Origin: Ischnura elegans
Lineage: Eukaryota > Arthropoda > Insecta > Odonata > Coenagrionidae
Assembly (NCBI RefSeq): GCF_921293095.1
Contig: NC_060252.1
Coordinates: 7,564,001 to 7,628,000 of the forward strand
Reading direction: 5' to 3'
Length of the DNA stretch: 64,000 nt
A program made the position numbers and the translations under genes. Below, in pieces: positions 6,681 through 6,883 of the stretch; within the stretch, counting starts at the first letter, position 1, and every line of letters begins with the position of its first letter. The notes under the pieces were generated by a model, which was given only the letters and a program-made list of their open reading frames with translations, had not been told where the DNA came from and searched no databases.

Positions 6681-6883
6681 ATGTTGAATTAAAACTTTTG
6701 GGCTATGTCGCCGCGTCAGATTTTGGGTGGCCCCAACGTTTCCCGACCGATGCTGGTCGCTTTCTCAAGGGAATCTGTTTCTGAATCAGATTCCCTTGAG
6801 AAAGCGACCAGCATCGGTCGGGAAACGTTGGGGCCACCCAAAATCTGACGCGGCGACATAGCCCAAAAGTTTTAATTCAACAT
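6681..6883. repeat. Near-perfect 203-bp palindrome (foldback)
   Basis: Arms 6681-6777 and 6787-6883 are 97 bases each and exact reverse complements as far as I can check by eye; only 9 bases separate them. Each arm includes a small hairpin (CGACC/GGTCG) followed by GGGAAACGTT, a hammerhead-like arrangement that recalls terminal repeats of Penelope-like elements. The perfect arms imply a recent origin or active homogenisation. Confidence 0.9.

What the first reader, a model, noticed from the sequence alone, without database searches (positions are those of the whole stretch)
6681..6883. Almost perfect 203-bp palindrome with hammerhead-like hairpins
The two 97-base arms look identical and only 9 bases separate them, an unstable structure that should decay quickly. 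Each arm has CCCTTGAGA-like sequence, a CGACC/GGTCG hairpin and GGGAAACGTT, in hammerhead order. Known: Penelope-like elements have terminal repeats with hammerhead motifs, sometimes in inverted arrangement. Inference: this is a solo head-to-head pair of such termini, or a small ribozyme-bearing retroelement.
Basis: partly seen in the sequence, partly recalled or inferred. Interest (0 to 1): 0.7.

Follow-up and report, generated by a model that had tools for sequence, protein, structure and literature searches.

The report
Palindrome of paired Penelope retrotransposon ends
The 203-bp palindrome is a short insertion made of two head-to-head end pieces of a Penelope-type retrotransposon, and its sister copies suggest that this jumping gene inserts by copying one RNA twice, once from each side of a staggered cut.

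Summary
The palindrome is real: two identical 97-nt arms and a 9-nt centre. The insertion is larger than reported. A 32-nt "tail" (6649-6680) precedes it, and a 12-bp target-site duplication (TSD) flanks the whole (6637-6648, 6882-6893).

Sister copies in the same genome identify it. In L070 the arm is the pseudo-LTR (pLTR) of an intact 806-aa Penelope-like element (PLE), and the tail is the start of its ORF. No hammerhead ribozyme was found.

Of 33 independent palindromic copies, 32 have exactly one tail and a TSD, most often 12 bp, in a symmetric AAAN-[12]-NTTT target (30 copies). Centres differ. Arms meet at a predicted transcription start. In longer insertions the two pieces stop within 24 nt of each other in 9 of 14, and recurrent variants are in both arms in 10 of 10 observations.

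Best reading: two-ended target-primed reverse transcription of one RNA, joined in the middle. Inverted pLTRs and tails are published; this mechanism competes with the published self-priming proposal.

The parts
6637..6648 (.). left copy of the 12-bp target-site duplication ATAGATAATGTA
   Evidence: identical to 6882-6893; 12 bp reached by 1 of 20,000 same-geometry placements; sister copies have their own TSDs
6649..6680 (-). 32-nt tail, present on one side only: on the minus strand the last base of the ATG, codons 2-11 of the Penelope ORF (MTSTRESFNEE) and one more base
   Evidence: present once in 38 of 40 copies and twice in none; continues into the 806-aa ORF in L070
6681..6777 (-). left arm: pseudo-LTR; sense strand is minus; its inner end is the predicted transcription start site; the ATG spans 6680-6682
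   Evidence: same sequence lies at both ends of the full-length element L070; in L068 TATATATA starts 31 nt before the A of CAGATT
6778..6786 (.). centre TTTCTGAAT, where the two cDNA copies were joined (inferred)
   Evidence: differs between copies: 36 distinct centres in 50 listed loci of 58
6787..6883 (+). right arm: second pseudo-LTR copy, tail-less; the last two bases AT are shared with the TSD
   Evidence: outer start of this arm lies at unit positions 31-39 in all 30 copies with an exact 12-bp TSD
6882..6893 (.). right copy of the 12-bp target-site duplication

Best explanation
The palindrome is a miniature insertion of a Penelope-like retrotransposon, a solo inverted pLTR pair. Proposed mechanism: (1) the element's RT/GIY-YIG protein cuts both strands of AT-rich DNA about 12 bp apart, leaving 3' overhangs; (2) each 3' end primes reverse transcription inside the element RNA, one at the end of the tail (in the ORF) and the other about 32 nt upstream at the pLTR/ORF border; (3) both copies are read from one RNA molecule toward its 5' end; (4) the two cDNA ends are joined by end joining and the overhangs are filled in, giving the 12-bp TSD. 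When priming happens in the first pLTR of the RNA, both copies run off at the transcription start site and a short palindrome results. When it happens in a later pLTR, longer inverted copies result. Shown: anatomy, PLE identity, TSD, one tail per insertion, different centres, coupled 5' limits, shared variants. Inferred: the polarity of the cut, simultaneous priming on both strands, use of one RNA molecule, the TSS, the type of joining.
For: Identity: L070 and L072 carry the arm beside an intact 806-aa ORF. The ORF matches RVT_1 at E 5e-15 and all 20 fetched GIY-YIG loci, 19 of them over the GIY-YIG stretch. One tail: 32 of 33 independent copies. TSD exactly 12 bp in 24 of 40 copies. Symmetric target AAAN-12-NTTT in 30 copies. 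Tail-less end at unit positions 31-39 in those 30. Centre lies at the predicted TSS. 5' limits within 24 nt in 9 of 14 pairs against 1.5 on average in shuffles, 0 of 200,000 shuffles reaching 9. In L070 a short and a full-length piece end 7 nt apart; in L072 two long pieces end 10 nt apart. Recurrent variants in both arms, 10 of 10 observations from 5 insertions. Other PLE families in the genome: 16 of 16 close GIY-YIG neighbours are divergent; 12 of 14 inverted-arm loci have a TSD of 11 bp or more (control 1 of 182), and 10 have one tail of 25-45 nt. Print: purified anole PLE protein cuts and extends both strands and starts at two sites matching the tail ends (PMC11167929, main text read).
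Against: 5 of 14 pairs have very unequal 5' limits (231-1877 nt apart), so at least one copy often stops early. Among short palindromes A57G is in one arm only in L014 but in both in L044, and G67A is in one arm of L007 and one arm of L022; I treat these as later mutations. Arms can be converted after insertion (L034, A70C), so shared variants alone do not prove one RNA. PMC11167929 reports no difference in start site between strands in vitro, so the strict one-tail rule is unexplained there. L017 has no tail and no TSD. 3 of 20 tail ends (L074, L075, L078) have no partner within 7 kb.
Confidence: 0.68

Rival explanations
1. Self-priming (snap-back): one strand folds back on itself and is copied, making the second arm; only one end is target-primed. 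This is the explanation proposed in print for PLE palindromes, on an antisense template (PMC3846280, passages read).
For: Explains identical arms, coupled 5' limits and shared variants. Proposed in PMC3846280 from the abundance of inverted repeats with palindromes at the junction.
Against: 14 of 50 listed loci have an unpaired centre of only 1-2 nt, too small for a hairpin loop (8 of them share one centre, at least two of these, L040 and L041, being independent insertions with their own TSDs). In 5 of 9 coupled pairs the tail-less piece is the longer one, which a fold-back of the tailed copy cannot give. The outer ends of both arms sit at two specific sites about 32 nt apart, one each, beside a symmetric target and a TSD, rather than at random stops. 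In L070 one piece is a pLTR and the other the whole element. Centre trimming after insertion could weaken the first two points.
Confidence: 0.2
2. Two-ended target priming as above, but with two separate RNA molecules, one per end.
For: Fits the tail, TSD and symmetric target equally well.
Against: Does not predict that both pieces stop at the same internal place (9 of 14) or share the same recurrent variants (10 of 10), unless both RNAs come from one locus with one start.
Confidence: 0.1
3. A foldback or miniature inverted-repeat DNA transposon moved as a palindromic unit.
For: Multi-copy palindrome with TSD.
Against: The centre is not inherited: 36 distinct centres in 50 loci. Ends are asymmetric, with a tail on one side only. 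The arm is the pLTR of an RT element.
Confidence: 0.01
4. Hammerhead-bearing retrozyme or circular-RNA retroelement.
For: Near-core ATGACGA-GC-ACCC-GC-GAAA at the arm/tail border, close to where the anole PLE has its hammerhead.
Against: No Rfam hammerhead at E <= 10; no stems I/III; 9 such near-cores in the window, this one included.
Confidence: 0.01

Closest known systems
Penelope elements of Adineta vaga (Pen2a_Av and others), PMC3846280
   Same: Inverted pLTRs, a 31-bp tail on one of them, 8-10 bp TSD, TATATATA plus Inr in the pLTR, pLTR reaching into the ORF start, palindromes at the inverted junction (passages).
   Different: Here the commonest TSD is 12 bp, the tail is present once in 32 of 33 copies rather than described as optional, and ORF-less pairs with TSD form a distinct class (58 exact-centre loci).
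Poseidon from Anolis carolinensis (PAc), PMC11167929
   Same: AT-rich target, two internal RT start sites whose interval is the 30-40 bp tail, both target strands cut and extended in vitro.
   Different: PAc has a hammerhead; none found here. The tail here ends about 33 nt into the ORF; PAc's most common start is 111-118 bp in.
LINE-1 twin-primed insertions
   Same: Inverted piece, TSD, end-joined centre (recalled; PMC2837659 seen only in a listing with the start of its abstract).
   Different: Twin priming inverts a different 5' segment (recalled); here both pieces start at nearly the same RNA site and overlap.

Membership tests
Penelope-like element (canonical, EN+) | reverse transcriptase ORF linked to the repeat | tested here: met
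   L070/L072: 806-aa ORF between two copies of the arm; RVT_1 E 5e-15
Penelope-like element (canonical, EN+) | C-terminal GIY-YIG endonuclease | tested here: met
   direct Pfam match weak and under its cut-off (17.2 of 22.6 bits, E 0.0065, residues 686-722); but the ORF matches 20 of 20 loci found by PF01541 (L064 and L065 being one place), 19 over that stretch, L062 only at 480-681; best 487 columns with RT, E 7.5e-62
Penelope-like element (canonical, EN+) | pLTRs, direct and inverted, with a short tail on one | tested here: met
   L070: inverted pLTR+tail, sense pLTR-ORF-pLTR without tail
Penelope-like element (canonical, EN+) | short TSD (8-10 bp in A. vaga, PMC3846280) | tested here: met
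   38 of 40 short copies have 8-16 bp, 24 of 40 exactly 12; 14 of 15 complete pairs among 20 tail loci have 11 bp or more
Penelope-like element (canonical, EN+) | RT sequence falls in the PLE clade of a tree | not tested
   no tree was built; motif resemblance (TSLFTNIP, YIDDT, YIGETGR) is recalled
Hammerhead ribozyme / retrozyme | CTGANGA-stem II-GAAA core with stems I and III | tested here: not met
Foldback/MITE DNA transposon | symmetric ends and an inherited interior | tested here: not met
   one-sided tail; 36 distinct centres in 50 loci

The most novel reading that the evidence does not exclude
Penelope elements integrate by obligate two-ended target-primed reverse transcription. A paired enzyme makes a symmetric 12-bp staggered cut, each strand's 3' end primes at its own one of two start sites on the same RNA molecule, and the two cDNAs are end-joined at that RNA's 5' end. 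Inverted pLTRs, tails and palindromes would then all be direct read-outs of one mechanism, in several PLE families of this genome.
Probability: 0.55. Interest if true: 0.8.

Novelty: new variant of a known kind. Interest (0 to 1): 0.6.

Why it matters
How Penelope elements integrate, and why their copies are inverted and tailed, is open in print: PMC3846280 proposes self-priming and says that further experiments are needed to discriminate between models, and PMC11167929 leaves the later steps to be validated. These short, near-identical copies record both ends, the cut, the two start sites and the join in about 230 bp, so they can discriminate between the models by counting. They also explain a kind of near-perfect palindrome that may disturb assembly (L069 has a 500-N gap where its inner piece ends).

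Tried and rejected
Rejected: hammerhead. miRNA genes: Rfam gave several miRNA-family hits below their gathering scores, many on both strands, as a long perfect hairpin would. MITE/foldback. Assembly artefact. Nothing found: exact 22-, 25- and 24-mers in viral contigs, the 22-mer in prokaryote genome contigs, blastn in plasmids and phages, a 23-mer in papers, tRNA scan. The sense RNA of one arm plus tail showed no unusual stability (z 0.34). No blastn match links the palindrome to the other inverted repeats of the window beyond short weak ones. None of the 20 GIY-YIG loci L047-L066 (1.5 kb each side) holds this arm or tail: they are other PLE families. Not answered: genome-wide counts of single arms and of tails, a search with the variant copy L018, and a hammerhead scan of the whole genome.

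Rows dropped before counts: 7 of the 40 short copies as duplicates of one insertion; L017, L010 and L013 from the target tally (no tail, or no exact 12-bp TSD at the tested positions); L070 (the reference) and L072 from the 14 pairs; of the 20 GIY-YIG loci, L048, L051, L055 and L058 (no inverted arms found), L065 (same place as L064) and L060 (only a short inverted repeat outside the match, no TSD) from the 14, where for L050 I also chose, the second of its two inverted repeats.

Full report
Observation. The window palindrome is as described: arms 6681-6777 and 6787-6883 are 97/97 identical around a 9-nt centre. Two things were missed. A 12-bp exact direct repeat, ATAGATAATGTA, lies at 6637-6648 and 6882-6893 (1 of 20,000 same-geometry placements in the window reach 12 bp; 15 of 20,000 pairs of random positions do, all at 15 bp or more and so probably overlapping picks). 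And a 32-nt unpaired segment, 6649-6680, lies between the left repeat and the palindrome. The insertion is therefore 6649-6881 and asymmetric.

Hammerhead. Rfam at E <= 10 gives no hammerhead in 6400-7200, in 6630-6790 or in the full-length relative L070:380-3300. A relaxed search for core plus stems finds none near the palindrome on either strand. One near-core (ATGACGA-GC-ACCC-GC-GAAA, first C missing) sits at the arm/tail border, close to where the anole PLE has its ribozyme (PMC11167929, main text read), but it is one of 9 such near-cores in the window.

Sister copies. The genome holding the window (1.72 Gb, 110 contigs, unnamed; size and contig count remind me of the damselfly Ischnura elegans, recalled, not tested) returned 40 scored palindromes out of 1045 first-look candidates. 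All 40, the window copy among them, were fetched. They were chosen by likeness to the window palindrome, so short centres are favoured. Eight share flanks and are a single insertion carried by another repeat that multiplied, leaving 33 independent insertions. In 38 of 40 the 32-nt tail is on exactly one side, in none on both; L017 and L037 have none. L037 belongs to the duplicated group, so among independent insertions 32 of 33 have one tail. TSDs of 8-16 bp flank 38 of 40, exactly 12 bp in 24 of 40 (19 of the 33 independent ones). Among 1560 mismatched flank pairs, 51 reach 9 bp: 42 lie within the duplicated group and the other 9 are exactly 9 bp; 7 more reach 8 bp, the length found in L010. 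In the 30 independent copies with an exact 12-bp TSD, the target shows A at 0.53, 0.57 and 0.73 in the fourth, third and second bases before the TSD, and T at 0.73, 0.67 and 0.40 in the second to fourth bases after it, a symmetric pattern. The tail-less end starts at unit positions 31-39 in these 30.

Centres. Genome-wide, 58 loci match CTCAAGGGAAT-N0-30-ATTCCCTTGAG exactly, with 0 in the control. The 50 that were listed have 36 distinct centres, and 14 of 50 leave only 1-2 unpaired bases. So the palindrome is, I infer, made anew at most insertions and not carried along as a unit. Some centres repeat pieces of the arm (L010, L012, L014: 0, 2 and 2 of 500 shuffles do as well; 7 of the 19 tested have 25 or fewer, 12 do not, the window copy's centre among them), which recalls templated end joining.

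What the arm is. The 129-nt tail plus arm gave 43 perfect matches listed from 1858 first-look candidates, 40 of them scored. L070 shows the full element: inverted pLTR with tail, 29 nt, sense pLTR, an intact 806-aa ORF beginning MTSTRESFNEE, second pLTR without tail, and TSD. L072 has an intact 806-aa ORF of the same start, but its tail side runs on as element ORF sequence to the edge of the fetched stretch, so it is a head-to-head arrangement and not an insertion end. The ORF hits RVT_1 (E 5e-15) and, under the cut-off, GIY-YIG (17.2 of 22.6 bits); solved structures give only weak RT matches (best E 1.2e-4). It matches 20 of 20 loci found independently with the GIY-YIG family (19 over the GIY-YIG stretch), in one case over 487 columns including the RT (E 7.5e-62). 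Hence the arm is a pLTR and the tail is the beginning of the ORF. In L068, upstream of the arm, TATATATA starts 31 nt before the A of TTCAGATT, so the inner end of the arm looks like the transcription start site. In the short copies both pieces end there or within a few bases.

Longer insertions. Of the 20 loci, 15 have an inverted tail-less second piece, 14 of them with a TSD of 11 bp or more (not L082). L069 runs into an assembly gap, L074, L075 and L078 have no partner within 7 kb, and L072 is as above. These loci were chosen for a perfect tail at one end. In 14 pairs (L070 and L072 left out) the two pieces stop within 24 nt of each other in RNA coordinates in 9, against 1.5 in shuffles and 0 of 200,000 shuffles; the tail-less piece is longer in 5 of the 9, the tailed one in 3, and they are equal in 1; the other 5 pairs differ by 231-1877 nt. 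In L070 a short and a full-length piece still end 7 nt apart, in L072 two long pieces 10 nt apart. In the overlap of 15 pairs, variants seen in more than one insertion are in both arms in 10 of 10 observations (5 insertions); 4 variants seen in one insertion only are also in both arms, and the 4 private to one arm are all seen once. Against this, among short copies A57G and G67A occur in single arms, L034 shows that arms can be converted after insertion, and one two-tailed pair listed (C3:3083417/3083593) was not examined.

Other families. 149 GIY-YIG matches were scored from 2199 first-look candidates. None of the 20 fetched holds our arm. All 16 neighbour pairs closer than 10 kb are divergent (two may be one duplicated segment). 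Of 14 inverted-arm loci kept from the 20 fetched, 12 have a TSD of 11 bp or more (control 1 of 182) and 10 have one tail of 25-45 nt. The pattern is therefore probably not private to this family.

Mechanism. A symmetric target, two specific start sites used one per end, a join at the RNA 5' end, and shared stops and variants fit two-ended target-primed reverse transcription of one RNA. Published in vitro work shows a PLE protein cutting and extending both strands, with two start sites bounding the tail (PMC11167929). The published alternative is self-priming on an antisense template (PMC3846280, passages). It explains identical arms and shared stops but not the two fixed outer ends with one tail, nor the 1-2 nt centres, nor longer tail-less pieces, unless the centres were trimmed later. 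Identity as a PLE terminal pair I hold at about 0.97; the mechanism at about 0.65.

Novelty. Inverted pLTRs, tails, TSDs and junction palindromes of PLEs are in print. In what I saw of the papers returned by the searches (listings, passages of four papers, and the main text of PMC11167929) there was no account of a one-tail-per-insertion rule, a 12-bp symmetric target, or coupled stops. These searches cover only open-licence papers, and three PLE papers were not held.

Noticed in passing
L019, L020, L025-L028, L034, L037: One palindromic insertion sits in another repeat that later multiplied (flanks 95.7-100% alike). In L020 the centre is flipped relative to L019; in L034 the variant A70C is in both arms and the centre is rearranged: recombination or conversion between the arms after insertion.
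   Followed up: partly
L076 and L083: Two insertions at different places have 5' limits differing by exactly 841 nt (1584/2425 and 1676/2517 in element coordinates). Unexplained.
   Followed up: no
A full-length element like L070, or a real exception to the one-tail rule.
   Followed up: no
window 31699-31948, 53503-53671, 35855-35913, 41963-41994: Other inverted repeats of 74-94% identity, not linked to the palindrome by blastn beyond short weak matches; no clear target duplication was found beside the first three.
   Followed up: partly
window 56629-57585 (-) and 4597-4998 (+): Reverse transcriptase ORF (RVT_1, E 1.1e-31) and a shorter ORF resembling a LINE reverse transcriptase by eye, without a Pfam hit.
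   Followed up: no
L069 (G000:C6:32162158-32169686): A 500-N assembly gap begins where the inner piece of a long Penelope insertion ends; a one-mismatch copy of its A-rich left target repeat lies directly beyond the gap.
   Followed up: partly
C4:34021236-34025359, C12:74965905-74970097 and 14 more pairs of G000: GIY-YIG matches of Penelope-like elements occur as divergent pairs 144-3738 bp apart.
   Followed up: partly
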